Source: Burkholderiales bacterium
GTDB lineage: Bacteria; Pseudomonadota; Gammaproteobacteria; Burkholderiales; Burkholderiaceae_E
NCBI GenBank assembly: GCA_020348765.1
Contig: CP070753.1
Location: forward strand, 2,596,787 to 2,609,093
Direction: 5' to 3'
DNA: 12,307 nucleotides
Shown here: positions 3-12,307 of the stretch, in pieces
Layout: every line of letters begins with the position of its first letter
How positions within the stretch are numbered: position 1 is the stretch's first letter
The notes under the pieces: model-generated
Told to the model about the DNA's origin: nothing
What the model saw: only the letters and a program-made list of their open reading frames with translations
Database searches by the model: none
Program-made: the position numbers and the translations under genes

Positions 3-2429
3 GCGGCGATCGACGCGGCGGCCGCGGACGCGGCCAACGACTCCGCGGTCAACTCGGCGTCGGCCTTCAAGGTGTTGCAGGACGCCGGCGTGCCCGCGGT
101 CGTGGTCAACAGCCCGCCGCAGGTCAACTTCACCGTGTTCTCCGACGGTGCGGTCAAGACCGGGCTGAGCACTTCGAACGTGCGGTTCGCGATCGCCAAG
201 CTGGTCAAGGGCACCGATGGCGCGCCGGATCGGTGGGTCAACTATGTCTACCGCACCGAGAACGCGACGCCAGGCGTCGGGCCCGGTGGCGTGCCGGTGC
301 TCGAGAGCGCCCAGCAGGCGACCACGGATCCGGGCTCGGCCGAGCAGCTGGTGTTCAACTACGCCGGATATTACACGTACACCTTCAGCACCGACATCAC
401 CGACCCGTCCCAGACCAACGGCGTCGCTTTCGAGCCGGGCCGCACGCACCGGATCGCGATCCAGCTGAGCTACACGAACCTTCTCGGCGAGGCAGTCAGG
501 GTCAATCCTTACTTCGACATCACCTTCGATGCCAGCGGCAACTCGGTGCCGGTCACCGACCCGAACGCGACACGCAAGATGGCCGACGTGTCCTCGTGCA
601 ACAGCTGCCATGACAAGCTGTCGCTGCACGGCGGCGGACGGGTCGACGTGCAGTACTGCGTGATGTGCCACAACCCGGGCACGACCGATGCCAACAGCGG
701 CAACGTGCTGACGATGGCGACGATGGTGCACAAGCTGCACGCCGGCCGCCTGCTCAAGGCCAAGCTCGACGCGGGCGAAGGCGGCGAGGAATACGTGATC
801 TGGGGCTACCGCGACAGCCGGCACGACTACTCGGAGGTGGGGTTCCCGCAGGACCTGAGGAACTGCACCAAGTGCCATGACGGCGCCAACCCGGACACGC
901 CGCAGGGCGACAACTGGAAGACCGGCGCCAGCCAGTCGGCCTGCCTGACCTGTCACGCGAACCGGCCGGGGTCGGACTGGTACGCGAGCCACACCACCAT
1001 TGCCGAGGCAATTTTCGGAGCCGGAGCCTCGCCTGCGGAACTGGACGACTCGCTGTGCAAGAACTGCCACCGGCCTGGCTCCAGCGTCGGTCCGGATCGG
1101 GTGCACCGGAACCAGAACGAGGAAAACGCGGCCCGGTACAAGTTCAACATCGAGGAGGTGACGGTCCTGCAGGTGCCGACCGACACCGCCGAGGGCCAGG
1201 TCCAGGTCAAGTACTACCTGTCCGACCCGACCAACGATGACCGGGCGTACAGCCTCGAGTCGGATCCCGAGCGATTCGGTCGCCTGCGCCTTTACCTGGC
1301 CTACCAGAACCTGGTCGGCCAACCGGGTAATGTCACCGAGTTCTCGTCTTACAACAACGGCGGCAACAGCGCGCGTGTGGACGCGATCGACGGGACCAAC
1401 GACGGCAGCAACCGCTACACGCACGTGATCACGATCCCGCCCAACTCGGCCACCGCAGTGGCGGCCGGCACGGCACGCGTGATCAGCATCGGCCAGGTGG
1501 TCGAGCCGAAGCTCGAGGTCAAGTCGGCGACCGACCCGCGTCCGGAAGTGGTGCCGCGCGAGACGGTCAACGTCGTGGTCCAGAACACGTTCCGGGACTT
1601 CGCGCTGACCGGCACCCTGGCCCCGCGCCGGACGATCGTCTCGAACGACAAGTGCAACGCCTGCCACGGAGCGCTCGGTACGACGTCGGGGTCGAACACG
1701 CTGGCCAACGCCTTCCACGGCGGAGCGCGCAACACGGTCGAAGCCTGCGTGCTGTGCCATGACGCGAATCGCTCGTCCTCGACGGTCATGACCAACGGTC
1801 TCGCGTTCCAGGAGTCGTATCACTTCAAGCGCATGATCCACGGCATCCACGGCAACTCGCGGCGCGACTACCCATTCACGCACGGCAACCCGGTCCAGGG
1901 CGCGTTCGGCAAGGACGGCTCGTTGCAGGGCGGCGGCAGCTTCCTGAACGACTATTCGATCCGGGGCTTCGCCCAGACCGTGTTCGCGGCGGGAACGCCG
2001 GTGCCGGCGGGATCGAGTTTCGAGTCGATCGGCGAGCTGATCACCGAGGCGGCGCGCGCCCTGGGCTACACGGGCAGCCCGGTCGAGATCGAGAACTACG
2101 CGGCCGAGGTCGCGTGGCCGGGCGTGGGCATCAACTGCAATGCCTGCCACGTGAACAACTCGTACAAGGACGATCGCGGCCCGCTCGGATCGGTGGTATC
2201 GCTGCGTGAAGGCGACCCGCCGGGCTGGTCGGTGATCTCGCCCAAGGCGGCCACCTGCACGGCCTGTCACGACTCGAGCCAAGCGATCGGGCACGTGACC
2301 AGCTTCGGAGGTGCTGTCTTCGGCAACCTGAGCCAGGGCGAGTGGTGGAACAGTCCGCAGGAAACCTGCAGCGACTGCCACGCGAGCGGCGTGTTCATGG
2401 GTGTGGACATCGTCCACGGCCAGAACTAG
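3..2429 (+). CDS. OmcA/MtrC-family decaheme c-type cytochrome, 5' partial
   Basis: The reading frame is open from the first complete codon, so the true start, signal peptide and any lipobox lie outside the window. The visible 808 residues contain ten CXXCH heme sites, beginning at residues 199, 219, 288, 314, 352, 551, 582, 712, 752 and 789. The order is beta-rich region, five hemes, beta-rich region (about 370-540), five hemes, which matches the four-domain plan of MtrC/OmcA. All 20 cysteines are in heme motifs. Histidines outside the motifs number at least five in each heme half, including an MVHKLH and an MIHGIH segment, enough for bis-His ligation. Family members sit on the cell surface and pass electrons between the MtrAB conduit and extracellular minerals, electrodes or shuttles. 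The dmsE- and mtrB-like genes follow on the same strand. The N-terminal edge is alanine-rich. Direction of electron flow and exact substrate cannot be read from the sequence. Confidence 0.93.
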   Translation, partial: AAIDAAAADAANDSAVNSASAFKVLQDAGVPAVVVNSPPQVNFTVFSDGAVKTGLSTSNVRFAIAKLVKGTDGAPDRWVNYVYRTENATPGVGPGGVPVLESAQQATTDPGSAEQLVFNYAGYYTYTFSTDITDPSQTNGVAFEPGRTHRIAIQLSYTNLLGEAVRVNPYFDITFDASGNSVPVTDPNATRKMADVSSCNSCHDKLSLHGGGRVDVQYCVMCHNPGTTDANSGNVLTMATMVHKLHAGRLLKAKLDAGEGGEEYVIWGYRDSRHDYSEVGFPQDLRNCTKCHDGANPDTPQGDNWKTGASQSACLTCHANRPGSDWYASHTTIAEAIFGAGASPAELDDSLCKNCHRPGSSVGPDRVHRNQNEENAARYKFNIEEVTVLQVPTDTAEGQVQVKYYLSDPTNDDRAYSLESDPERFGRLRLYLAYQNLVGQPGNVTEFSSYNNGGNSARVDAIDGTNDGSNRYTHVITIPPNSATAVAAGTARVISIGQVVEPKLEVKSATDPRPEVVPRETVNVVVQNTFRDFALTGTLAPRRTIVSNDKCNACHGALGTTSGSNTLANAFHGGARNTVEACVLCHDANRSSSTVMTNGLAFQESYHFKRMIHGIHGNSRRDYPFTHGNPVQGAFGKDGSLQGGGSFLNDYSIRGFAQTVFAAGTPVPAGSSFESIGELITEAARALGYTGSPVEIENYAAEVAWPGVGINCNACHVNNSYKDDRGPLGSVVSLREGDPPGWSVISPKAATCTACHDSSQAIGHVTSFGGAVFGNLSQGEWWNSPQETCSDCHASGVFMGVDIVHGQN

Positions 2430-2578: not shown

Positions 2579-2584
2579 GAGGGG
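2579..2584 (+). promoter_or_regulatory. Ribosome binding site deciding the dmsE-like start
   Basis: GAGGGG ends five bases before ATG 2590. An in-frame GTG at 2584 overlaps this site itself, so it cannot use it, and the ATG is the better start. Confidence 0.6.
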
Positions 2585-2589
2585 TGCGC

Positions 2590-3558
2590 ATGAGAATCAG
2601 GACTGCGCTGGCAATCGTCGGCTTGTGCGTGTTCGGCCTGGTCGGAACCGCGTGGGCCGCGACCGACGAGGAGATCTCCGAGGAGTGCGTCGAGTGCCAT
2701 GACGAGGAGGACCTCCCGGATTGGAGCAAGAGCGCGCACGCGGTGGCTACCGACGCGCGCGCGCCGACCTGCGTGTCCTGCCACGGCCCGAGCCCGAAAC
2801 ACATCGACCCGCCCGAGGATGCGGACGGACGGCCATCACCGGATTGGGTCTTCAGCGCCGACGGCGGGTCGCTGCCGATCGACCGCAGCGCAGTGTGCAT
2901 GAGCTGCCATGACAAGGATCCGGTGCGCGCGTTCTGGGGCGGCAGCGAGCATCACAATGCCGATGTCGCCTGCACGGCGTGCCATGACATCCATGTGAAC
3001 AAGGACACGGTGCTGGACAAGCGCATGCAGGCCGAGACCTGTTACACCTGCCACAAGACGCAGCGGGTCCAGGTCAACCGTCCCTCGCGCCACCCGATCC
3101 CCGAGCTGAAGATGACCTGCTCGGACTGCCACAACGTGCACGGCTCGGTGGGCCCGAAGCTGGTCAACCGCGACAGCACCAACGACACCTGCTACACCTG
3201 CCACGCCGAGAAGCGCGGCCCGTTCGTGCACCAGCACGAGCCGGTGGTCGAGGACTGCGCCTACTGCCACAACCCGCACGGGAGCACGCTGCCGGCGATG
3301 CTGACCGCACGGCCGCCGATTCTGTGCCAGCAGTGTCACACGCCGCACGTCGCCGGCGGCATCGGTGCGCTCGGCGGGCAGCCCGGCGTGTTCTCGCCGG
3401 CGGCGCCCGGATTCGGTCCCCAGATCGACTCGGTGTCCAGCGGCAAGAACGTCGTCACGATGTGGCAGGCGCGCAGCTGCATGAACTGCCACACGCAGGT
3501 CCACGGCTCGAACAATCCTTCGGCCACGAATCCGACGCCGCAGTTGATGTTCCGCTGA
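2590..3558 (+). CDS. DmsE/MtrA-family periplasmic decaheme c-type cytochrome
   Basis: The 322-residue protein begins with a Sec signal peptide: MRIR, a hydrophobic core, and a probable cleavage after AWA near residue 22. Ten CXXCH sites start at residues 33, 61, 103, 128, 151, 177, 201, 223, 246 and 297. About a dozen further histidines can serve as distal ligands. Length, ten hemes and a C-terminal heme followed by QVHGSN match the MtrA/DmsE/PioA group. Members of this group fill the MtrB barrel and carry electrons across the outer membrane. The only cysteine outside a heme motif is in the signal peptide, with Leu before it, so it is not a lipobox. The barrel gene follows after 16 bases, as expected for partners. 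No dmsAB-like reductase is in view, so a role with the upstream surface cytochrome and the barrel fits better than DMSO respiration. Confidence 0.93.
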   Translation: MRIRTALAIVGLCVFGLVGTAWAATDEEISEECVECHDEEDLPDWSKSAHAVATDARAPTCVSCHGPSPKHIDPPEDADGRPSPDWVFSADGGSLPIDRSAVCMSCHDKDPVRAFWGGSEHHNADVACTACHDIHVNKDTVLDKRMQAETCYTCHKTQRVQVNRPSRHPIPELKMTCSDCHNVHGSVGPKLVNRDSTNDTCYTCHAEKRGPFVHQHEPVVEDCAYCHNPHGSTLPAMLTARPPILCQQCHTPHVAGGIGALGGQPGVFSPAAPGFGPQIDSVSSGKNVVTMWQARSCMNCHTQVHGSNNPSATNPTPQLMFR

Positions 3559-3574: not shown

Positions 3575-5764
3575 ATGACATCGATCGTTCGACCAACCGG
3601 CATTCGCGAAACGGCGCTGGCGTTGGCCCTGCTCGCGGCCTTCGCGCCCGCGCATGCCGATGACGAGAGCGTGATGGAGGCCTCGGTCGCCGCGGGCCTC
3701 GGGACGGCGAGCGGCGACAGCGCCGATCGGTCCCTGTTCGGCCAGTACAACGGCCTGCGCCGGCGCAGCGTGTACGGCCTGCTCGACGGCGACTACTACC
3801 GCCGCAATGACGACGAAGGGACCATGACCCGGTTGCAGGCCTTCGACCTGCTGGGCGAGACCCGCACCGTCAGTTTCGTCTGGAAGCGGCAGGGGCGCTG
3901 GAAGCTCGGGCTCGACTACAGCGACCTGGTGCGTCACGAGCCGTACATCGTCAACACCGGGATGCTCGGTGCCGGCACGACGACTCCGCGCGTGGTGCAC
4001 CTGCCGGGCGGCCCAGGCACCGGCTCGGACCTGGAGCTGAAGACCAAACGCTCGCGGCTCGGCCTTTCCTACGCCACCTGGCTGGCACCGTCGCTCGAGC
4101 TGCAGACCAAGGTCACGACCGAGAACAAGGACGGTTCGCGGCTGTTCGGCGCCGGCATGGGCTGCCCGAGCTTCGTCGCGCCGGGATGCGGCTTCACGAC
4201 CAACATCAGCGCCGGCTGGGGCGTCCTGTTCCTGCCCGAGCCGGTCGAGTCCAACCACACCCAGGTCGAGTTGAGGCTCAGCTACGCAGCCGACAAGCTG
4301 CGCCTGAGCGGCGGCTACTACGGCTCGTTCTACAGCAACTCGGCCGGTTCGCTCGACCCGGACGTACCCGGGAGCCTGAACAACCCGCTCGGCGTGCTGC
4401 TGCCGCTCAGCCCGGGCCTGCAACCCATTCTCGGCCAGCGCATCGCACTGTGGCCGGACAACCAGGCGCATCACTTCGACCTCGCGGGCGTGTACGTGTT
4501 CACGCCGAGCACCAGGGCCAACTTCAAGCTCGGCTACTCGCGCGCCACGCAGAACCAGAGCTTCGCCGGCGCCGGCCTGAGCGGGGCGCCGGCAGGCGTC
4601 GCCGACCTCGGTGCCGAGGTGAACACGACGCTGGCCCACGTGCGGGTCACCTCGCGACCGATACGCAAGCTCTCGCTGAGCGCGGAGATGCGGTACACGG
4701 ACCGCGACGATGACACGCCGCTGGACGAATACAACCTGATCCGCAGCACGACCTTCACCAACCGCCAGTTGTCCCGCACCAAGCTGCGCGGCAAGCTGCA
4801 GGCGAGCTACCAGTTCAGCAGCGACTATCGCGGCACGCTGGGCGCCGAGTACGAGTCGATCGACCGCGACGCGTTCACGATCACCAGCGCGGTCAGCGGC
4901 ATCAGCGCCCTGCGCCAGAAGACCGACGAGGTCTCGTACCGCGCCGAGCTTCGGCGCCGCATGTCGGACGACTTCAGCGGTGCGATCAGCTGGGTCACCA
5001 GCCGTCGTGACGGTTCGAACTGGCAGCGGGTCAACAGCGGACTCGGGGTGACCGAGATCACCGACCCGGCGATCGACCTGGTCACCGGATCGGTGTTCAT
5101 GCCGACGGTCGCCGATCGCGAGCGGGACAAGATCCGACTGGTGGCCAACTGGCAGGTGGACCGCGACCTGTCGCTGCAGTTCAGTGCCGAGGACGGAAGG
5201 GACCGTTTCACGACCCTGCGCAACCTGGGCCTGAAGAACACGCGCATGGCGACGTACACGGTCGACTGGGACTACCGGATCACACGGCGGTGGAATTTCA
5301 GCGGCTACGTCTCGCACGGGCTGCAGAAGCTGAATCAGGCGCGCCAGGCCGGCTACGTGATGGCCTACGACAACTCGAGCATGGACATCGGGCTGGGCCT
5401 GACCGGCAACCCCACCGGTGATCTGGAGGTCGGCGGCAGCCTGTCTTTCATCTATGACACGAGCCGCGACGCGCAGACGCTCGAGGCGAGCGGCAACGCG
5501 AACAGCGCGGCGCTGCTGGCTGCGTCCGGCGGCCTGCCGGACATCGTTTTCCGGCGCATGCAGCTGAGCCTGTTCGGCAGCTACGAGCTCTCGGACGAGT
5601 CGTCGGTTCGCGTCGACCTGGTCCACCAGCGCGCGCGGCTCAACGACTGGGCCTTCGGCTACGACGGCGTGCCGTTCGTCCATGGTGACAACACGACGGT
5701 GTCGCAGCAGCCGCGCCAGAGCGTGACCTTCTTCGGCATCCGCTACATCCACCGGTTCGAGTGA
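3575..5764 (+). CDS. MtrB/PioB-family outer-membrane beta-barrel of the electron conduit
   Basis: The 729-residue protein has an Arg-containing N-terminus, a hydrophobic core and an AHA cleavage site near residue 29. The rest is rich in alternating, aromatic-flanked strands with polar turns, typical of a large beta-barrel. Length and position directly after an MtrA-like decaheme cytochrome match the MtrB/PioB family, whose barrel sheathes the cytochrome so electrons can cross the outer membrane. The start ATG has GGAG (3564-3567) seven bases upstream. The mature N-terminus lacks the CXXC known from Shewanella MtrB. The only cysteines are Cys197 and Cys205, spaced for a loop disulfide. The protein ends in His-Arg-Phe-Glu, one residue past the terminal aromatic usual for barrel proteins. 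Its stop codon overlaps the next gene's GTG start (GTGA, 5761-5764). The family call is firm; strand number cannot be given by eye. Confidence 0.9.
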   Translation: MTSIVRPTGIRETALALALLAAFAPAHADDESVMEASVAAGLGTASGDSADRSLFGQYNGLRRRSVYGLLDGDYYRRNDDEGTMTRLQAFDLLGETRTVSFVWKRQGRWKLGLDYSDLVRHEPYIVNTGMLGAGTTTPRVVHLPGGPGTGSDLELKTKRSRLGLSYATWLAPSLELQTKVTTENKDGSRLFGAGMGCPSFVAPGCGFTTNISAGWGVLFLPEPVESNHTQVELRLSYAADKLRLSGGYYGSFYSNSAGSLDPDVPGSLNNPLGVLLPLSPGLQPILGQRIALWPDNQAHHFDLAGVYVFTPSTRANFKLGYSRATQNQSFAGAGLSGAPAGVADLGAEVNTTLAHVRVTSRPIRKLSLSAEMRYTDRDDDTPLDEYNLIRSTTFTNRQLSRTKLRGKLQASYQFSSDYRGTLGAEYESIDRDAFTITSAVSGISALRQKTDEVSYRAELRRRMSDDFSGAISWVTSRRDGSNWQRVNSGLGVTEITDPAIDLVTGSVFMPTVADRERDKIRLVANWQVDRDLSLQFSAEDGRDRFTTLRNLGLKNTRMATYTVDWDYRITRRWNFSGYVSHGLQKLNQARQAGYVMAYDNSSMDIGLGLTGNPTGDLEVGGSLSFIYDTSRDAQTLEASGNANSAALLAASGGLPDIVFRRMQLSLFGSYELSDESSVRVDLVHQRARLNDWAFGYDGVPFVHGDNTTVSQQPRQSVTFFGIRYIHRFE

Positions 5765-6564
5765 GTCGCCGCAATCGTTCGAAGGCCGCGCGCCGCGCCA
5801 GCGAAGGGGCGCCGGCGCAGGCGGCCGGGGCAACCGCCTCGCAGCAGCCGACACCCCGCCGCAGCGGCATGAAGTGGGTGGTGGCGCTGGTGCTCGCGCT
5901 GCCGATCCTGCTCGCACTCGCGTACGGGCTGCTCTCCCGGGCGCTGTGGGCCCCGGGCCCGGGCGCCACCGCGACCGCACTCGCGCTGTCGCGCCAACCG
6001 CGACCGGCCGAACCGGGCGCACCGGGCGCGGGCAGTGCGCGGCCCCCGGCGGCACCTGTCACGAGCGGCGCGCCACCCGCGGCTGCGCCGCGAGCGAGTG
6101 GCGCGATGCCGGGAACGACCGTGGGCGAGTTCGAGCAGCTCGCGGACCGGCTCGCGCAGCGCCTTCAGGCGCAACCGAACGACCCGGTCGGCTGGAACAC
6201 GCTGGCGCACACCTACTACGTGCTGAAACGGTTCCCGGACGCGGCCCAGGCCTACGAGCGCCTGGTGACCATCTCGACGCCGGACGCCGAAACCCTGGCC
6301 GACTACGCGGATGCGCTGGCGATGGCCCAGGGCCGAAGCCTGGAGGGCAAACCGATGGAGCTGGTGCGCCGGGCACTCGAGCTCGACCCGTCGCAGTGGA
6401 AGGCCCTGTCGATGGCGGCCACGTACGCGTTCGAACGGCAGGACTATGCCAGCGCGATCGAACACTGGGAGCGCGCGCTCGCCGGCGCGCAGCCCGGCTC
6501 GGATCTGGCCAGGAGCATCGAGGCCAACATCGCGCAGGCGCGCACGCTCAGCGCATCGAAATAG
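5761..6564 (+). CDS. Membrane-anchored TPR protein, CcmI/NrfG-like, coupled to the barrel gene
   Basis: The 267-residue protein has a basic N-terminus (MSRRNRSK), one transmembrane segment (about 37-58), an Ala/Pro-rich linker (about 61-115) and a TPR block (about 120-260). Positive charge before the membrane segment predicts the TPR block faces the periplasm. The block parallels that of the CcmI encoded at 7332: ALAMAQGRSLEGKPMEL followed by RALELDP here, against VMLAQGGNFAGRP and RALAIDP there. CcmI and NrfG TPR domains bind the C-terminal parts of apocytochromes c for heme ligation. This protein lacks CcmI's first membrane segment, its loop and its C-terminal domain. The GTG start overlaps the barrel stop (GTGA), indicating translational coupling. 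No strong ribosome site is seen. ATG 5869, just before the membrane segment, is an alternative start. Domain type is sound; a role as chaperone for the multiheme cytochromes is inferred. Confidence 0.8.
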   Translation: MSRRNRSKAARRASEGAPAQAAGATASQQPTPRRSGMKWVVALVLALPILLALAYGLLSRALWAPGPGATATALALSRQPRPAEPGAPGAGSARPPAAPVTSGAPPAAAPRASGAMPGTTVGEFEQLADRLAQRLQAQPNDPVGWNTLAHTYYVLKRFPDAAQAYERLVTISTPDAETLADYADALAMAQGRSLEGKPMELVRRALELDPSQWKALSMAATYAFERQDYASAIEHWERALAGAQPGSDLARSIEANIAQARTLSASK

Positions 6565-6572
6565 CCTCGACA

Positions 6573-6614
6573 CCGGCGACCGCAGCCGTGTCGCCGGCGG
6601 TAGCGGTCACCGCT
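6573..6614. terminator. Hairpins between the convergent TPR and CBS genes
   Basis: CCGGCGAC (6573-6580) pairs perfectly with GTCGCCGG (6590-6597) over a 9-base loop, just after the TPR gene stop. A second near-perfect palindrome, AGCGGT-C-ACCGCT (6602-6614), covers the stop codon of the minus-strand CBS gene. There is no T tract on either side, so these may be weak bidirectional or Rho-assisted terminators. Confidence 0.35.
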
Positions 6615-7035
6615 GGATGTATTGCACGAGCTGGTCGATCACGAACTGCTGGTCGGCGTTCTTGCTCTTGACCAGGTCGCCAATGGACACGATTCCGATC
6701 AGCTTGCCCTGATCGAGCACCGGCAGGTGCCTGACGTGCTTGTCGGTCATCACCGCCATGCACTCGTCCACGGTCTCTTCGGGTCTGACGCACATGACAT
6801 GGGTGCTCATGATCTCGCGCACCGGCGTCGTCGGAGACCGCCTGCCCTTCAGGAACACCTCGCGCGCGTAGTGACGCTCGGTGAAGATGCCGACCAGCTT
6901 GTCGTCGTCGAGCACGACCAGCGCGCCGACGTCATGCTCGGCCATCTTGCGAATGGCATCGACCACGCTCGCGTCAGGACCGACGGCATGAACCTCGTTT
7001 CCCTTCTTGACCTGCAATTGCTGCACGGTTTGCAT
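6607..7035 (-). CDS. Small tandem CBS-domain protein
   Basis: The 142-residue protein consists almost entirely of two CBS domains. The first covers about residues 10-65, with PDASVVDAIRKMAEHDVGAL and a KLVGIFTERHYAR strand-helix. The second covers about 75-132, with the parallel PEETVDECMAVM and KLIGIVSIGDLV. Stand-alone CBS pairs usually bind adenine nucleotides or related ligands and sense energy state. Its partner is unknown, and no catalytic or DNA-binding domain is attached. The ATG at 7035 is preceded by GGGAGG at six bases' distance, which settles the start against longer open frames upstream. It is convergent with the TPR gene and divergent from ccmI, so it belongs to neither operon. 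A cytosolic protein is expected, since no signal peptide or membrane segment is present. Confidence 0.88.
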   Translation of the reverse strand: MQTVQQLQVKKGNEVHAVGPDASVVDAIRKMAEHDVGALVVLDDDKLVGIFTERHYAREVFLKGRRSPTTPVREIMSTHVMCVRPEETVDECMAVMTDKHVRHLPVLDQGKLIGIVSIGDLVKSKNADQQFVIDQLVQYIQR

Positions 7036-7331: not shown

Positions 7332-8663
7332 ATGTTCTGGTTCTGGCTTGCGGTCGGCGTGCTCGCCTGCGTCGCGACCGCGTCTCTCGCCTTCCCTCTC
7401 CTGTTCGGCGCCCGCCGTGATCCCTCCGCCGCTGCACCTAGCGACGAGGCGCGCCGGGTGGCCGTGTATCGGGACCGCCGGGCCGAGATCGAGGCCGAGC
7501 GGGCCGCCGGCCGACTGACCGAAGACGAAGCGAAGCGCGCGCTTGACGAGCTGATCGAGGACGCTGCCCGTCAGTTGTCCGGGCCCGACACCGACGCGGC
7601 ACCCCAGGCATCGCAGCCGCGACCGGCCGCCGGCCTGCAGAACACCGTGCTCGTTGTGCTGGCCGCGCTGATCGTGCCGGCGACAGCGCTGGCCGTGTAC
7701 GCGATGCTGGGCACGCCGCAGGTGGTCGGGCTGGATCGCGCGGCACTGCGCGGCGAGATGAGCCCGGCCAGCCTTTCGCAGTCGCTGACGATGCTGCGTG
7801 AGCGGGTCCGGCGATCGCCGGACGACGTCGAGGGCTGGGTGCTGCTCGGGCAGGCCACGCGGATGAGCGGCAATCATGCCGAGTCCGCGGCCGCGTACGA
7901 GCGCGCCAGTGCGCTTGCGCCGAACGAGGCATGGCTGATCGCCGAGCAGGCCGAGTCGGTGATGCTTGCGCAGGGCGGCAACTTCGCGGGTCGGCCGGTC
8001 CAGCTGCTCGAGCGTGCGCTCGCGATCGACCCGAACGACAGCAAGTCCGTGGCGCTGATGGGTGCCGCCCAGTTCCGGCTCGGCAATCGCGAGCAGGCGC
8101 TCGTCTACATGAGGAAGCTCCAGACGTCGATGCCGCCAGGCTCGCCCGAGGCGCAGCACATCGGCGAGCTGATCGCGAGGATCGAGTCCGGGCTCGGTGG
8201 CGCCGGCGGTGGGTCTGCGCGCGGCGGCGCGCCGGCCGATGGCGCGGGAGCCGCGGGCGCGAGGGCTTCGGCATCGGCGCCTGCGCCGGGCTCGGCGGTC
8301 GCGCCGGGTGCGACGGCTGCGACCGCGATCTCCGGCACCGTGACCATCGACCCCGCGCTGCAGGCGCAGGTGCCGCCGGGAGCGACGATGTTCGTGCTGG
8401 CGCGCGGCACCGACGGCTCCCGGGTCCCGATCGCCGCGCAGCGGGTTCGCGTCGACCGCTGGCCGATCGCGTTCACGTTGAGCGACGCGCAGGCGATGAA
8501 TCCCGGGCGGCTGCTGTCTGAGGCCGATTCGGTGATTCTCGAGGCGCGCGTGAGCCGCGGCGGCACGGCGGCCCGACAGAGCGGCGACCCGTTCGGGGTC
8601 AGCGCAGCGGTCAAGCTCGGGGCCCAGGGCATCGTGTTGCACATCGACCAGAAGGTGCCATGA
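7332..8663 (+). CDS. ccmI: CcmI (CycH), apocytochrome c chaperone of the Ccm system
   Basis: The 443-residue protein starts with a membrane segment (about 3-25, MFWFWLAVGVL). A charged helical loop follows (about 38-80, rich in Arg/Glu/Ala). A second membrane segment lies at about 103-126, TPR repeats at about 147-290 and an Ala/Gly-rich linker at about 290-330. The C-terminal beta-rich domain (about 333-443) starts with ISGTVTIDP. This is the full bipartite plan of CcmI, which binds apocytochrome C-termini and presents them to the CcmF/CcmH heme ligation complex. ATG 7332 is chosen because the membrane segment starts immediately after it, as in the family. The ribosome site is weak, and ATG 7278 or an upstream TTG would add unlikely sequence. 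The stop overlaps ccmA (ATGA, 8660-8663). In many operons ccmI is last; here it is first. Confidence 0.88.
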   Translation: MFWFWLAVGVLACVATASLAFPLLFGARRDPSAAAPSDEARRVAVYRDRRAEIEAERAAGRLTEDEAKRALDELIEDAARQLSGPDTDAAPQASQPRPAAGLQNTVLVVLAALIVPATALAVYAMLGTPQVVGLDRAALRGEMSPASLSQSLTMLRERVRRSPDDVEGWVLLGQATRMSGNHAESAAAYERASALAPNEAWLIAEQAESVMLAQGGNFAGRPVQLLERALAIDPNDSKSVALMGAAQFRLGNREQALVYMRKLQTSMPPGSPEAQHIGELIARIESGLGGAGGGSARGGAPADGAGAAGARASASAPAPGSAVAPGATAATAISGTVTIDPALQAQVPPGATMFVLARGTDGSRVPIAAQRVRVDRWPIAFTLSDAQAMNPGRLLSEADSVILEARVSRGGTAARQSGDPFGVSAAVKLGAQGIVLHIDQKVP

Positions 8664-9397
8664 GTGCCCCGCTGCTAAGGGTCTCGGAGCTCGCCTGTAC
8701 GCTCGGCTATCGGACGCTGTTCTCGGATCTGGGATTCGAGCTGGACGCTGGCCAGTGGATGATGCTGACCGGTGCCAACGGTGCCGGCAAGTCCACGCTG
8801 CTGCGCGTTCTGGCCGGGCTGGTGGCACCGACTGCCGGCTCCGTGTGCTGGTATGGGACCCCGCGCCGGGCCGAGGACCCGGACTGGCATGCGCGCCTCG
8901 TGTACCAGGGCCATGCGTTCGGCTGGAAGGACGCGTTGACGACGACCGAGAACCTGGCGATGCAGGCGGCACTCGACCTGGGCGTCGGGCATCCGGCCAC
9001 CCGCGGCGATGCGATCGAGGGTGCGCTCGAGCGGGTCGGGCTGGCCCGCCAGCGCAAGCTCGCGTTCGCCCGGCTGTCGGCAGGACAGCGGCGACGCCTG
9101 GGCCTGGCCCGGCTGGTCCTGGTGCGCCGCCCGCTGTGGCTGCTCGACGAGCCGACCACCGCGCTCGACACGGACGGCCAGCGGCTGTTCGCGAGACTGC
9201 TCGAGGGCTATCTCGGCGCCGGCGGATGTGCGGTGATCGCGACCCACCTCGAGTTCCCGACCACGCTGCCTGCGGTCGCACTGCGGCTCGGTGAAGTCGC
9301 CGGCGCCGCTGCGGGCGCCCGACCGGCGAGCGGCCCCGGCGCGCCGTTGGCCGGCGCCGGCGAAGTGCCCATCGCAGCGGTGCCGGGCCGTGCGTGA
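8660..9397 (+). CDS. ccmA: CcmA, heme-exporter ABC ATPase
   Basis: This 245-residue ABC ATPase shows Walker A GANGAGKST (38-46), a Q-loop (YQGHAFGWKDALTTTENL), the signature LSAGQRRRL (from 139), Walker B LWLLDEP (159-165) and the switch His196 (IATH). LSAGQ in place of LSGGQ is common in CcmA. With CcmB it forms the cytoplasmic-membrane ABC complex that, with CcmC and CcmD, releases heme-loaded CcmE. The ATG overlaps the ccmI stop in an ATGA, implying coupling. The conserved ATPase ends near residue 208, about the usual family length. It is followed by about 35 residues of Ala/Gly/Pro-rich tail of unknown role. Neighbouring ccmB and ccmC remove doubt over which ABC family this is. Confidence 0.95.
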   Translation: MSAPLLRVSELACTLGYRTLFSDLGFELDAGQWMMLTGANGAGKSTLLRVLAGLVAPTAGSVCWYGTPRRAEDPDWHARLVYQGHAFGWKDALTTTENLAMQAALDLGVGHPATRGDAIEGALERVGLARQRKLAFARLSAGQRRRLGLARLVLVRRPLWLLDEPTTALDTDGQRLFARLLEGYLGAGGCAVIATHLEFPTTLPAVALRLGEVAGAAAGARPASGPGAPLAGAGEVPIAAVPGRA

Positions 9398-9416
9398 CCC
9401 GCGCGTGTTCGGCTCG

Positions 9417-10190
9417 ATGACTGCGGCGGCTCCAGACGCCACGTCGGTGCCGGTCGAAAGCGCGCCGTCCGGCGCGACGTCCGCGCTCGGCGCCGCGATG
9501 CCGTCGCCCGAGACCGTGAGCGCGACTCGGGCGATCGCCTGGGCCTGCTCGCGCGACCTGGTGCTCGCGCTGCGTGCCAAGTCCGAGGTCGCACTGATCG
9601 TGGTGTTCTTCGTGCTGGTGGTCTCGCTGTTCCCGCTCGGCGTCAGCCCCGATCCGGACCTGCTCGAGCGGATCGCGGCCGGGATCGCCTGGGTGGCGGC
9701 ACTGCTGGCGTCGCTGCTGTCGCTGCCCCGGCTGTTCGCCCTCGATCACGCCGACGGCACCCTGGAGCAACTGGTCCTGGCGCCGGCCGCGCTGCCCGCA
9801 CTGGTCGCCGGCAAGGTGCTCGCACACTGGCTGACCAACGGGCTGCCGCTGGTGCTGCTGGCGCCGGTCGCCGGCCTGCAGTTCGGCATGCATGCCGAGG
9901 CGATCGGCGCGCTGACCGTGGCGCTGCTTCTCGGCACCCCGACCCTGTCCTGGCTCGGGGCGATCGGCGCCGCGCTGACCGTGGGTACCCGCTCGGGCGG
10001 GGCGCTGCTGGCTCTGCTGGTGTTGCCGCTCGCGGTGCCGGTGCTGATCTTCGGCGCCGGGGCGCCCGAGGCGACGACCGCCGGTCTCGGCGCTCAGGCA
10101 CACCTGTCGCTGCTGGGCGCCGGGCTGATCCTGGCGTGCGTGCTCGGGCCGTTCGCGACCGCAGTTGCGATTAGAATTGCTTACAAGTAG
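9417..10190 (+). CDS. ccmB: CcmB, heme-exporter ABC permease
   Basis: This is a membrane protein with about six hydrophobic segments. The family-like N-terminal part, ACSRDLVLALRAKSEVAL followed by VVSLFPLGVSPDP, leads into a first membrane span. The segment LFALDHADGTLEQLVLAP, conserved in CcmB, follows. It is the permease partner of CcmA in heme handling for CcmE. Starting at ATG 9417 gives 257 residues, longer than the usual 220 or so. ATG 9498 would give 230 and fits family length better but leaves a 100-base gap. GTG 9390 would overlap the ccmA stop. None has a good ribosome site, so the start is uncertain; the first 27 residues from 9417 are low-complexity Ala/Ser/Pro. The stop lies three bases before ccmC. 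Confidence 0.9.
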   Translation: MTAAAPDATSVPVESAPSGATSALGAAMPSPETVSATRAIAWACSRDLVLALRAKSEVALIVVFFVLVVSLFPLGVSPDPDLLERIAAGIAWVAALLASLLSLPRLFALDHADGTLEQLVLAPAALPALVAGKVLAHWLTNGLPLVLLAPVAGLQFGMHAEAIGALTVALLLGTPTLSWLGAIGAALTVGTRSGGALLALLVLPLAVPVLIFGAGAPEATTAGLGAQAHLSLLGAGLILACVLGPFATAVAIRIAYK

Positions 10191-10193
10191 GTC

Positions 10194-10940
10194 ATGGCAG
10201 GCATCAACTGGTTCAAGTACGCTTCCCCGGCCAGCTTCTATCCGCTGGCCGGCAGCATGATTCCGTGGTTCGCAACGGCGGCGGCCGTGCTCACGGTGAT
10301 CGGGCTCTACATTGGCTTCTTCGTCGCGCCCACCGACTACCAGCAGGGCGAGGCTTACCGAATCATCTTCATCCACGTGCCGGCGGCCTGGATGGCGATG
10401 TTCGCCTACGTCGTGATGGCCGGCTGGTGCGCCGTGTCGCTGATCTGGAACACGCGGCTGGCGGCGATGATGGCGCAGGCGATCGCGCCGACCGGGGCGA
10501 TGTGGGCATTCATCGCGCTGTGGACCGGCGCGTTCTGGGGCCGTCCGACCTGGGGCGCCTACTGGGTCTGGGACGCGCGCCTGACGTCGACCCTGATCCT
10601 GCTGTTCCTGTACCTGGGCTACATGGCGCTGCGGGCGGCGATCGACGATCCGCGTCGCGCCGACCGTGCCAGCGCGCTGCTCGCGCTGGTCGGCGTCATC
10701 AACGTGCCGATCATCTATTTCTCGGTCAAGTGGTGGAACACGCTTCACCAGGGAGCGAGCGTGTCGCTGACGGCGGCGCCCAAGATGGCGCAAGCCATGC
10801 TGGCGTCGATGTTGATCATGGCGATAGCGGCCTGGTTCTACACGATTGCGACATCGCTCGCGCGCGTGCGTGCCATCATCATGGTCCGTGAGGCGCACGC
10901 GGAGTGGGCGCAGCGCTGGGTGAGCGGAGGTCGGGCATGA
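10194..10940 (+). CDS. ccmC: CcmC, heme-handling protein that loads CcmE
   Basis: The 248-residue polytopic protein of the heme-handling family carries the tryptophan-rich WWD motif, WGRPTWGAYWVWD, at residues 115-127. It has the two periplasmic heme-ligand histidines expected of CcmC, His61 (FIHVPAAW) and His185 (WNTLHQGAS), on either side. Six membrane segments are apparent. CcmC binds heme on the periplasmic face of the inner membrane and attaches it to CcmE. The ATG follows the ccmB stop after three bases, with AGTAGG overlapping that stop as a possible ribosome site. The stop overlaps the ccmD start (ATGA). Length and motifs are normal for the family. Confidence 0.96.
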   Translation: MAGINWFKYASPASFYPLAGSMIPWFATAAAVLTVIGLYIGFFVAPTDYQQGEAYRIIFIHVPAAWMAMFAYVVMAGWCAVSLIWNTRLAAMMAQAIAPTGAMWAFIALWTGAFWGRPTWGAYWVWDARLTSTLILLFLYLGYMALRAAIDDPRRADRASALLALVGVINVPIIYFSVKWWNTLHQGASVSLTAAPKMAQAMLASMLIMAIAAWFYTIATSLARVRAIIMVREAHAEWAQRWVSGGRA

Positions 10941-11095
10941 TCGACTGGTTCCGGATGGGCGGCTATGGGTTCTTCGTCTGGAGCTCGTACGGCGTTCTGG
11001 CGCTGGCGATCGTGATCGAGGTGGTCGCGCTGCGCCGCCAGCGCGACAGTGCGCGTGAACATGTCGTCGAGACGACCGAGGAGGAAAGGGCGTGA
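10937..11095 (+). CDS. ccmD: CcmD, small heme-exporter subunit
   Basis: This is a 52-residue single-span protein. The aromatic [13 protein letters not shown] segment, typical of CcmD, leads into a membrane helix (about 11-32). A basic RRQRD stretch and an acidic C-terminus follow. CcmD stabilises the CcmABC-CcmE complex and aids release of heme-loaded CcmE. The ATG overlaps the ccmC stop (ATGA). It is preceded by GGAGG (10926-10930) at six bases, the clearest ribosome site in the operon, which rules out a longer upstream start. The stop overlaps the ccmE GTG start (GTGA). Confidence 0.92.
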
Positions 11096-11571
11096 AGCCT
11101 CGACACAGAAGGATGATCTGGATCGCGGCCGGGGTCGGCGCGTTGGGCGTCGCCGCGGCGTTGGTGCTGAACGCGTTCCGCAGCAACCTGGTGTTCTTCT
11201 ACACACCGACGCAGATCGCGGTTGGCGAGGCGCCCACCGGCAAGACGTTCCGGGTCGGCGGTCTGGTCGAGCCGGGCAGCGTCAGCCGCCAGGGCGACGG
11301 AACGACGGTCACCTTTCGCGTGACCGACAGCGCCAAGGCGATCCAGGTCTCGTATCGAGGCATCCTGCCCGATCTGTTCAAGGAGGGACGGGGCATCGTG
11401 GCGCAGGGCGCGCTGCAGGCCGACGGTTCGTTCCAAGCCAGCGAGGTGCTGGCCAAGCACGACGAGAACTACATGCCACCCGAGGCGGCCGAGGCGCTCG
11501 AGCGGGCCGGTCACCCGATCGGCGCGCCGGTCGAGTTCCTCGACAAGGCACGGCAGACCACCACACAGTGA
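11092..11571 (+). CDS. ccmE: CcmE, periplasmic covalent heme chaperone
   Basis: The 159-residue protein has an N-terminal membrane anchor (about 8-27) after a basic start, then an OB-fold-like beta domain. The decisive motif [12 protein letters not shown] contains His123, which binds heme covalently, and Tyr127, an axial ligand. These correspond to His130 and Tyr134 of E. coli CcmE. It takes heme from CcmC and delivers it to CcmF. The start is GTG 11092, overlapping the ccmD stop in a GTGA, with GAGGAGG (11078-11084) seven bases upstream. The standard HxxxY form is present, not the CxxxY variant found in some archaea and bacteria. Confidence 0.96.
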
Positions 11572-11581
11572 GGCCTTTCGC

Positions 11582-12307
11582 ATGATCGCAGAGCTCGGGC
11601 ATTTCGCGCTGATCCTCGCCCTGCCGGTAACCTTGCTGGCGGGCCTGCTGACCCTGTATGGCGCCTTCCGCCGGGACGCGTCGATGATGGCGGTCGCGGC
11701 GCCGGCGGCGATCGGCCAGTTCGCGCTGGTCGCGTTCGCATTCGGCTGCCTGCTGGCCTCGTTCGCGGCCAACGACTTCTCGGTGGCGCTGGTCGCCACG
11801 CACTCGAATCTGGCGCTGCCCGACGCGTACCGGATCGCGGCAACCTGGGGCTCGCATGAAGGCTCGATGCTGCTCTGGATCTTGATGCTGGCCGGCTGGA
11901 GCGCCGCGGTCGGAACGCTGTCCGGATCGCTGCCGGCGACCCTGCGTGCCCGGGTACTCGGCACGATGGCGCTGATCACCTTCGGCTTCCTGCTGTTCCT
12001 GCTGCTGACCTCGAATCCGTTCGAGCGGCTGCTGCCGGCCGCCGCCGACGGCCGCGACCTGAATCCGCTGCTGCAGGATCCGGGCATGGTGTTCCATCCG
12101 CCGCTGCTGTACATGGGCTACGTCGGCTTCGCGGTCGCGTTCGCGTTCGCGGTCGCGGGCGTGCTGGAAGGCCGTTTCGACGCGGCGTGGGCGCGCTGGG
12201 CGCGACCCTGGACCACGGTGGCCTGGTGTTTCCTGACGCTGGGTATCGCGCTCGGGTCGTTCTGGGCCTACTACGAGCTCGGCTGGGGTGGCTGGTGGTT
12301 CTGGGAC
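11582..12307 (+). CDS. ccmF: CcmF, cytochrome c heme lyase subunit, 3' partial
   Basis: The frame is open from ATG 11582 to the right edge, giving 242 of about 650 expected residues. It begins [14 protein letters not shown] and contains [11 protein letters not shown]. His172 lies in [12 protein letters not shown] and corresponds to the periplasmic heme-ligand His173 of E. coli CcmF. The visible part ends exactly inside the conserved tryptophan-rich motif, [11 protein letters not shown]. CcmF receives heme from CcmE and, with CcmH and CcmI, ligates it to apocytochrome c. GAGG (11570-11573) lies eight bases before the start, and the gene begins 10 bases after the ccmE stop. Genes for CcmG and CcmH would be expected next, outside the window. 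Confidence 0.95.

What the first reader, a model, noticed from the sequence alone, without database searches (positions are those of the whole stretch)
5761..6564. A second CcmI-like TPR protein is coupled to the electron-conduit operon
The gene after the MtrB-like barrel encodes a one-span TPR protein whose TPR block parallels that of the CcmI at 7332 (shared AQG...GRP/GKP and RAL-IDP/LDP segments). It lacks CcmI's other domains. E. coli makes a comparable split in NrfG, a TPR helper for one cytochrome. Here every heme site is ordinary CXXCH, so an unusual heme motif does not explain it. A chaperone for heme-dense decaheme apocytochromes would be a new specialisation.
Basis: partly seen in the sequence, partly recalled or inferred. 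Interest (0 to 1): 0.72.

Follow-up and report, generated by a model that had tools for sequence, protein, structure and literature searches.

The report
Truncated CcmI helper in metal-respiration operon
An operon for moving electrons across the cell's outer membrane ends in a cut-down copy of CcmI, the protein that hands unfinished cytochromes to the heme-attaching machine; it comes from another CcmI lineage than the cell's own copy and probably serves the operon's ten-heme cytochromes, which has not been tested.

Summary
Window 5761-6564 (+) encodes a 267-aa, one-span protein whose periplasmic part is the CcmI/NrfG-type TPR domain (PF23914, E 1.5e-21). It overlaps the mtrB stop by 4 bp and follows mtrC-mtrA-mtrB. 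It lacks CcmI's first span, cytoplasmic loop and Ig-like domain. All 20 heme sites of the two decahemes, as far as held, are CXXCH. A TPR-domain tree puts it in a supported short clade inside CcmI, not beside its own CcmI (26% identity). The nearest full-length CcmIs (weak node) come from ccm operons beside mtrAB, and the MtrB tree largely agrees. Adjacency of mtrCAB and ccm operons is published (PMC8805035). Best reading: a CcmI half that stayed with mtrAB as a private apocytochrome holdase, working like NrfG or SirG. Limits: the short gene follows mtrB at four loci (window, L006, L007, G028); in one genus it follows a nine-heme membrane cytochrome instead; related MtrBs without it exist; outside the order the link was absent (0 of 20 loci). 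Function is inferred.

The parts
5761..6564 (+). Short CcmI-type TPR protein, 267 aa (GTG start overlapping the mtrB stop by 4 bp)
   Evidence: PF23914 E 1.5e-21; junction; relatives share the N-terminus
5878..5934 (+). Single predicted transmembrane span (residues 40-58); probably corresponds to CcmI's second span
   Evidence: hydropathy; weak TIGR03142 match at model 78-112 of 118; helix 37-63 in the model
5941..6117 (+). Ala/Pro-rich low-confidence linker (residues about 61-119)
   Evidence: pLDDT about 47-58 in these blocks
6118..6543 (+). Periplasmic TPR domain (residues 120-261), eight helices
3575..5764 (+). mtrB/pioB outer-membrane barrel
   Evidence: TIGR03509 412 bits, cut-off 240
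2584..3558 (+). mtrA (DmsE family) decaheme cytochrome, 10 CXXCH
   Evidence: TIGR03508 282 bits; heme count
3..2429 (+). OmcA/MtrC family outer decaheme cytochrome, 10 CXXCH in the held part, runs off the window start
   Evidence: TIGR03507 550.6 bits; heme count
7332..8663 (+). Full-length CcmI of the host's ccm operon (comparator)
   Evidence: TIGR03142, PF23914 and PF23892 matches; lies with three CcmIs of the same family, 96/68
6607..7034 (-). CBS-domain-like protein on the opposite strand, between the mtr operon and the ccm operon
   Evidence: ORF list; the domain name is recalled from the sequence, no profile was run

Best explanation
The protein is the substrate-binding half of a CcmI: one membrane anchor plus the periplasmic TPR domain. 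It lies inside the CcmI tree and most likely descends from a CcmI of the kind found in ccm operons joined to mtrAB in Burkholderiales. It lacks the first span, the cytoplasmic loop and the Ig-like domain, and is the last gene of the mtrCAB operon. It most likely acts as a dedicated apocytochrome holdase: its TPR groove holds newly exported apo-MtrA and/or apo-MtrC while ten hemes are attached, and passes them to the cell's shared CcmF/H/I ligase. Shown here: the domain make-up, the place inside CcmI, the gene linkage and purifying selection. Inferred: the mtr-ccm origin (weak node), the substrate, the binding mode and the hand-over.
For: Domain content and one span. Short clade of 28 rows (98/89) nested in CcmI (39-row set 99/97), nearest to a clade of CcmIs from mtrAB-ccm loci (100/98; joint node 92/48, weak), the window's own CcmI lying elsewhere. 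TPR identity 73% to L006, 54% to the L011 CcmI, 26% to the own CcmI. The MtrB tree holds the window, L006 and L007 in a 97* set of five, next to four mtr-ccm loci (99*), together 100*. TPR and MtrB distances correlate (Mantel r 0.32, p 0.009, all 16 pairs). A 4-bp overlap recurs in L198, the same contig as L007. dN/dS 0.15-0.36 in eight pairs. In the family, 7 of 10 MtrB-positive genomes have the short gene against 1 of 64 others (not corrected for kinship). One CcmH match in the own genome (57% complete), so no private NrfF-like partner is evident. [quoted passage not shown] SirG is a second chaperone beside CcmI for SirA (PMC6976685).
Against: No binding or deletion data. The joint node with mtr-ccm CcmIs is weak (92/48), and of the 12 mtr-linked CcmIs in the tree 5 are in that nearest clade, one (L158) in the wider set and 6 elsewhere. 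The four genus-g16 genomes carry the short gene behind a nine-heme membrane cytochrome and on another contig than mtrB, so the substrate is not always Mtr. G449 has the gene without an MtrB match. G450, G452 and G454 have MtrB without it; G454 and G293 have MtrBs inside the window's own MtrB set but no such gene in the stretch around mtrB. Of 42 MtrB-positive genomes read in the order, only 2 have the short gene there. 0 of 20 mtrB loci outside the order have a CcmI-type TPR gene. The MtrBs of G028 and L008 are a distant type. C-CcmH is dispensable in E. coli (PMC3601427).
Confidence: 0.56

Rival explanations
1. A general CcmI-like booster: the short protein helps all multiheme c-type cytochromes of the cell, and the operon position only times its expression with the heaviest heme load.
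For: It sits beside different cytochromes in different genomes (mtrB; nine-heme membrane cytochrome). CcmI-type genes outside ccm operons lie within 10 kb of ORFs with 9 or more hemes more often than ccm-operon CcmIs do (13 of 23 against 22 of 94, p 0.004; threshold looked at afterwards).
Against: At 8 of the 9 loci of the short clade that I could read it stands in or just behind a cytochrome or mtrB gene (G449 is the exception). SirG was needed for SirA and not for NrfA, DMSO or TMAO respiration (PMC6976685, passages). At 5 or more hemes the enrichment is not significant (16 of 23 against 44 of 94, p 0.06).
Confidence: 0.24
2. A relic: a piece of ccmI left over when the ccm operon next to mtrAB was lost, kept by chance and without a role.
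For: The short clade lies near CcmIs of mtr-ccm loci, so a remnant is a natural origin.
Against: dN/dS 0.15-0.36 in all eight pairs compared; open reading frames over the TPR domain at the nine loci read; conserved TPR across the 28 sequences of A1; found also behind other cytochrome genes.
Confidence: 0.05
3. An assembly factor for the MtrAB complex, in which the TPR domain holds MtrA during insertion into the MtrB barrel rather than during heme attachment.
For: The gene directly follows and overlaps mtrB. TPR domains serve many assembly tasks, and many TPR folds match the model about as well as NrfG.
Against: Its sequence kin is CcmI. In genus g16 the gene follows a cytochrome gene with no MtrB match in the fetched stretches. 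Most mtrB loci read lack it (40 of 42 genomes; 20 of 20 loci).
Confidence: 0.11

Closest known systems
NrfG (E. coli NrfEFG heme lyase subunit)
   Different: 22% identity; 48.3 bits against the NrfG cut-off of 306; no NrfE/NrfF-like genes beside it in the window and a single CcmH match in the genome; no CXXCK in the two decahemes
SirG of Shewanella oneidensis
   Same: Second apocytochrome chaperone beside CcmI for one cytochrome; locus tag SO_0482 near sirA SO_0479 (PMC6976685, abstract and passages)
   Different: Serves a cytochrome with an atypical heme site and is proposed to work with SirEF; its sequence was not compared here
CcmI of mtrAB-linked ccm operons (Burkholderiales)
   Same: Nearest full-length relatives of the TPR domain in the tree (48-54% identity) and linked to mtrAB; adjacency of mtrCAB and ccmA-I is published (PMC8805035, passages)
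   Different: Full-length CcmI with N-terminal part and long C-terminal part, inside a ccm operon

Membership tests
CcmI/CycH TPR domain (PF23914) | TPR domain above the curated cut-off | tested here: met
   77.3 bits, cut-off 42
CcmI (full protein) | CcmI N-terminal part with two spans and a cytoplasmic loop (TIGR03142) | tested here: not met
   14.6 bits against 29.3; one predicted span only
CcmI (full protein) | C-terminal Ig-like domain (PF23892), present in the window's CcmI | tested here: not met
   not among its matches; 6 residues after the TPR profile end
NrfG | NrfG equivalog score | tested here: not met
   48.3 bits against 306
NrfG | Phylogenetic grouping with E. coli NrfG | tested here: inconclusive
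   NrfG is a long branch; AU test of short clade + NrfG p 0.188
NrfG | Operon partners NrfE/NrfF and a CXXCK substrate | tested here: not met
   neighbouring genes are mtrB and an opposite-strand gene; one CcmH match in the genome, 57% complete; only CXXCH in the two decahemes
Dedicated apocytochrome chaperone (NrfG/SirG type) | Binds its own apocytochrome and is needed for its maturation | not testable with these tools
   bench assay needed

The most novel reading that the evidence does not exclude
In Burkholderiales, heme-dense cytochrome loci (mtrAB, nine-heme membrane cytochromes, octaheme nitrite-reductase-like proteins, and giant proteins of up to 62 hemes, one shown to be built of MtrA-like modules) have repeatedly taken up a CcmI-type gene, often cut down to the TPR half, as a private holdase that feeds the shared ligase. 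The driver would be the number of hemes per chain, not an unusual heme motif.
Probability: 0.35. Interest if true: 0.72.

Novelty: new variant of a known kind. Interest (0 to 1): 0.52.

Why it matters
Decaheme conduits need ten hemes fixed to one chain, and how the general Ccm machine copes is, as far as I recall, an open question. A TPR half-CcmI encoded with the conduit gives a single-gene knock-out target for asking whether heme-dense apocytochromes need their own chaperone. If true, it could also help when electron conduits are moved into new hosts, where cytochrome maturation can be limiting (recalled, not from a call).

Tried and rejected
Recent tandem duplicate of the neighbouring CcmI: rejected on identity (26% against 73% to L006) and on the tree, although the AU test of the two window copies as a pair was only p 0.057, with the own CcmI on a long branch.

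NrfG orthology: not supported by profile or partners, not excluded by the tree.

Enrichment of cytochromes beside CcmI-type genes outside ccm operons: not significant at 5 or more hemes (16 of 23 against 44 of 94, p 0.06). At 7 it is 15 of 23 against 35 of 94 (p 0.02), at 9 13 of 23 against 22 of 94 (p 0.004), at 15 7 of 23 against 3 of 94 (p 0.0004); I looked at these three after the first. The 23 include the short clade itself, and 7 of the 23 have no 5-heme ORF nearby. Five genes with less than 6 kb of flank were left out (3 of 5 had a 5-heme ORF).

Fold search does not discriminate among TPR proteins: designed repeats, Tom70 and MamA score like NrfG.

Contexts of the metagenome-only relatives (most P rows) could not be read, so the count of four mtrB loci is a floor. 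My local Ig-domain profile drifted onto the TPR (seen) and was not used for conclusions. The promoter and terminator scan gave nothing I rely on. Papers: no hits for mtrB + CcmI + tetratricopeptide, decaheme + tetratricopeptide + mtrA + operon, CcmI-like + multiheme, or ccmI + mtrA + extracellular electron transfer + Burkholderiales. One search (CcmI + paralog + multiheme cytochrome + tetratricopeptide) listed only the two reviews already seen in passages. Only the open-access library was searched.

Full report
What is there. The window holds mtrC (OmcA/MtrC family, cut at the window start), mtrA (DmsE family), mtrB, then a 267-aa TPR protein at 5761-6564, all on the + strand, followed by a small opposite-strand gene and the host ccm operon beginning with ccmI at 7332. 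The TPR gene begins at a GTG that overlaps the mtrB stop by four bases; in L198 an ATG overlaps the mtrB stop in the same way, and in L006 the two genes are separate. Relatives share the basic N-terminal stretch that follows the GTG. The protein has one predicted span, a low-confidence linker and a confident eight-helix TPR domain.

Where it came from. In a tree of 80 TPR domains (142 columns; few for so many rows), 28 short sequences form one clade (98/89) inside CcmI. The clade joins, with weak support (92/48), the CcmIs of L008, L011, L031, L036 and L143, which come from ccm operons beside mtrAB; a wider set of 39 rows including some other CcmIs is well supported (99/97). Of the 12 mtr-linked CcmIs in the tree, six lie elsewhere and L158 lies in the wider set. 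The window's own CcmI, a long branch, lies with three CcmIs of its family (96/68). In the MtrB tree (62 rows) the window, L006, L007, G454 and G293 form a 97* set next to L011, L036, L067 (the same contig as L143 by length and coordinates) and L031 (99*), together 100*. The two trees thus tell largely the same story, with two clear exceptions, G028 and L008, whose MtrB is a distant type. Distances correlate (r 0.32, p 0.009 for all 16 pairs; r 0.56, p 0.0001 after leaving out those two), though shared species history may add to this. Adjacency of mtrCAB and complete ccmA-I operons is already published for six clusters, mostly Betaproteobacteria (PMC8805035, passages read; 'TPR' and 'tetratricopeptide' do not occur in its main text).

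How strong the link is. In 399 genomes of the order, 44 have an MtrB match. I read the surroundings in 42 of them (G177 and G235, weak partial matches, were not fetched; several stretches are cut by contig ends). Eleven have two or more ccm genes within the stretch (G213, G136, G318, G049, G411, G045, G156, G115, G301, G381, G000), and two have a short TPR gene (G000, G028). In the family, 8 of 74 genomes hold the short gene at 230 bits or more and 10 hold MtrB; 7 hold both (Fisher p 5e-7, not corrected for kinship), but four of the seven belong to one genus in which the gene is on another contig than mtrB, directly behind a nine-heme protein with a membrane part that I read as cytochrome b-like (Pfam, run on the L200 copy, found only heme-type matches). 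G449 has the gene with no MtrB match; G450, G452 and G454 have MtrB without it. G454 and G450 carry mtrC-mtrA-mtrB with no CcmI-type gene in the stretch. Outside the order, 0 of 20 mtrB loci from 18 genomes (of 35 positive genomes other than G000 in the class sample of 369) carry a CcmI-type TPR gene and 1 of 20 has ccm genes nearby. The link is real but, in what I read, confined to part of the Burkholderiales and not obligatory.

Selection. Eight pairs of short TPR genes give dN/dS 0.15-0.36 over the TPR codons, so the gene is maintained.

How it probably works. [quoted passage not shown] In Shewanella, SirG and CcmI are both apocytochrome chaperones for SirA, and SirG was not needed for NrfA (PMC6976685, abstract and passages). 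The window protein keeps one anchor and the TPR part. From general knowledge (recalled), the N-terminal part of CcmI contacts the CcmF/CcmH ligase, so the short protein probably holds substrate and passes it on. The own genome has one CcmH match (genome completeness given as 57%), so a private ligase is not evident. Both decahemes have only CXXCH sites in the held sequence, so the need would come from the number of hemes per chain rather than from an odd motif. This last step is inference.

A wider pattern. Other CcmI-type genes lie near very heme-rich ORFs: 62 hemes in L243, L244 and L247 (in L247 a ccm operon is adjacent too), 34 and 24 in L242, 59 and 24 in L255, 27 and 17 in L251, 24 and 18 in L265, 35 and 24 in L027. 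The 62-heme ORF of L243, the one searched, carries six MtrA-like (TIGR03508) stretches. A separate short lineage (five rows, 100/100) stands beside seven-CXXCH proteins; the two whose sequence I read (L011, L207) also have a CXXCK site, and the L207 one matches cytochrome c552. With a threshold of 5 hemes the enrichment against ccm-operon CcmIs is not significant (p 0.06); at 7, 9 and 15 hemes p is 0.02, 0.004 and 0.0004, thresholds looked at afterwards. This is a lead, not a result.

Verdict. A real, conserved, truncated CcmI paralogue carried by an electron-conduit operon; a new variant of the NrfG/SirG kind. Its place inside CcmI is well supported (I would put it near 0.9); the mtr-ccm origin and the dedicated chaperone function are likely but not shown.

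Noticed in passing
L243:1625-6694 (also L244, L247): ORFs of 1683-1690 aa with 62 CXXCH motifs; the L243 one has six DmsE/MtrA-like decaheme stretches; a CcmI-type gene with a short tail lies about 3 kb downstream.
   Followed up: partly
L207:7836-10161; L008, L011, L036, L020, L249: A separate short CcmI-type clade (100/100 for L008, L011, L036, L020, L207; L249 was not in the tree) beside seven-CXXCH proteins; those read in L011 and L207 also have a CXXCK site, and the L207 one matches cytochrome c552.
   Followed up: partly
L200:298-8698 (also L201, L203; L202 in part): Short TPR gene directly behind a nine-heme protein with a membrane part, with a six-heme ORF upstream in three of the four (NapC/NirT-like in L200, the one searched): perhaps another electron conduit.
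   Followed up: partly
window 7332-12307: The host ccm operon runs ccmI-A-B-C-E-F with ccmI first; the genome's only CcmH match lies about 165 kb away (G000:C1:2439564-2439920).
   Followed up: no
P0043: A 280-aa database protein that joins a CcmI N-terminal part to an end like that of the short protein P0007; it may be an assembly chimera or a real intermediate.
   Followed up: no
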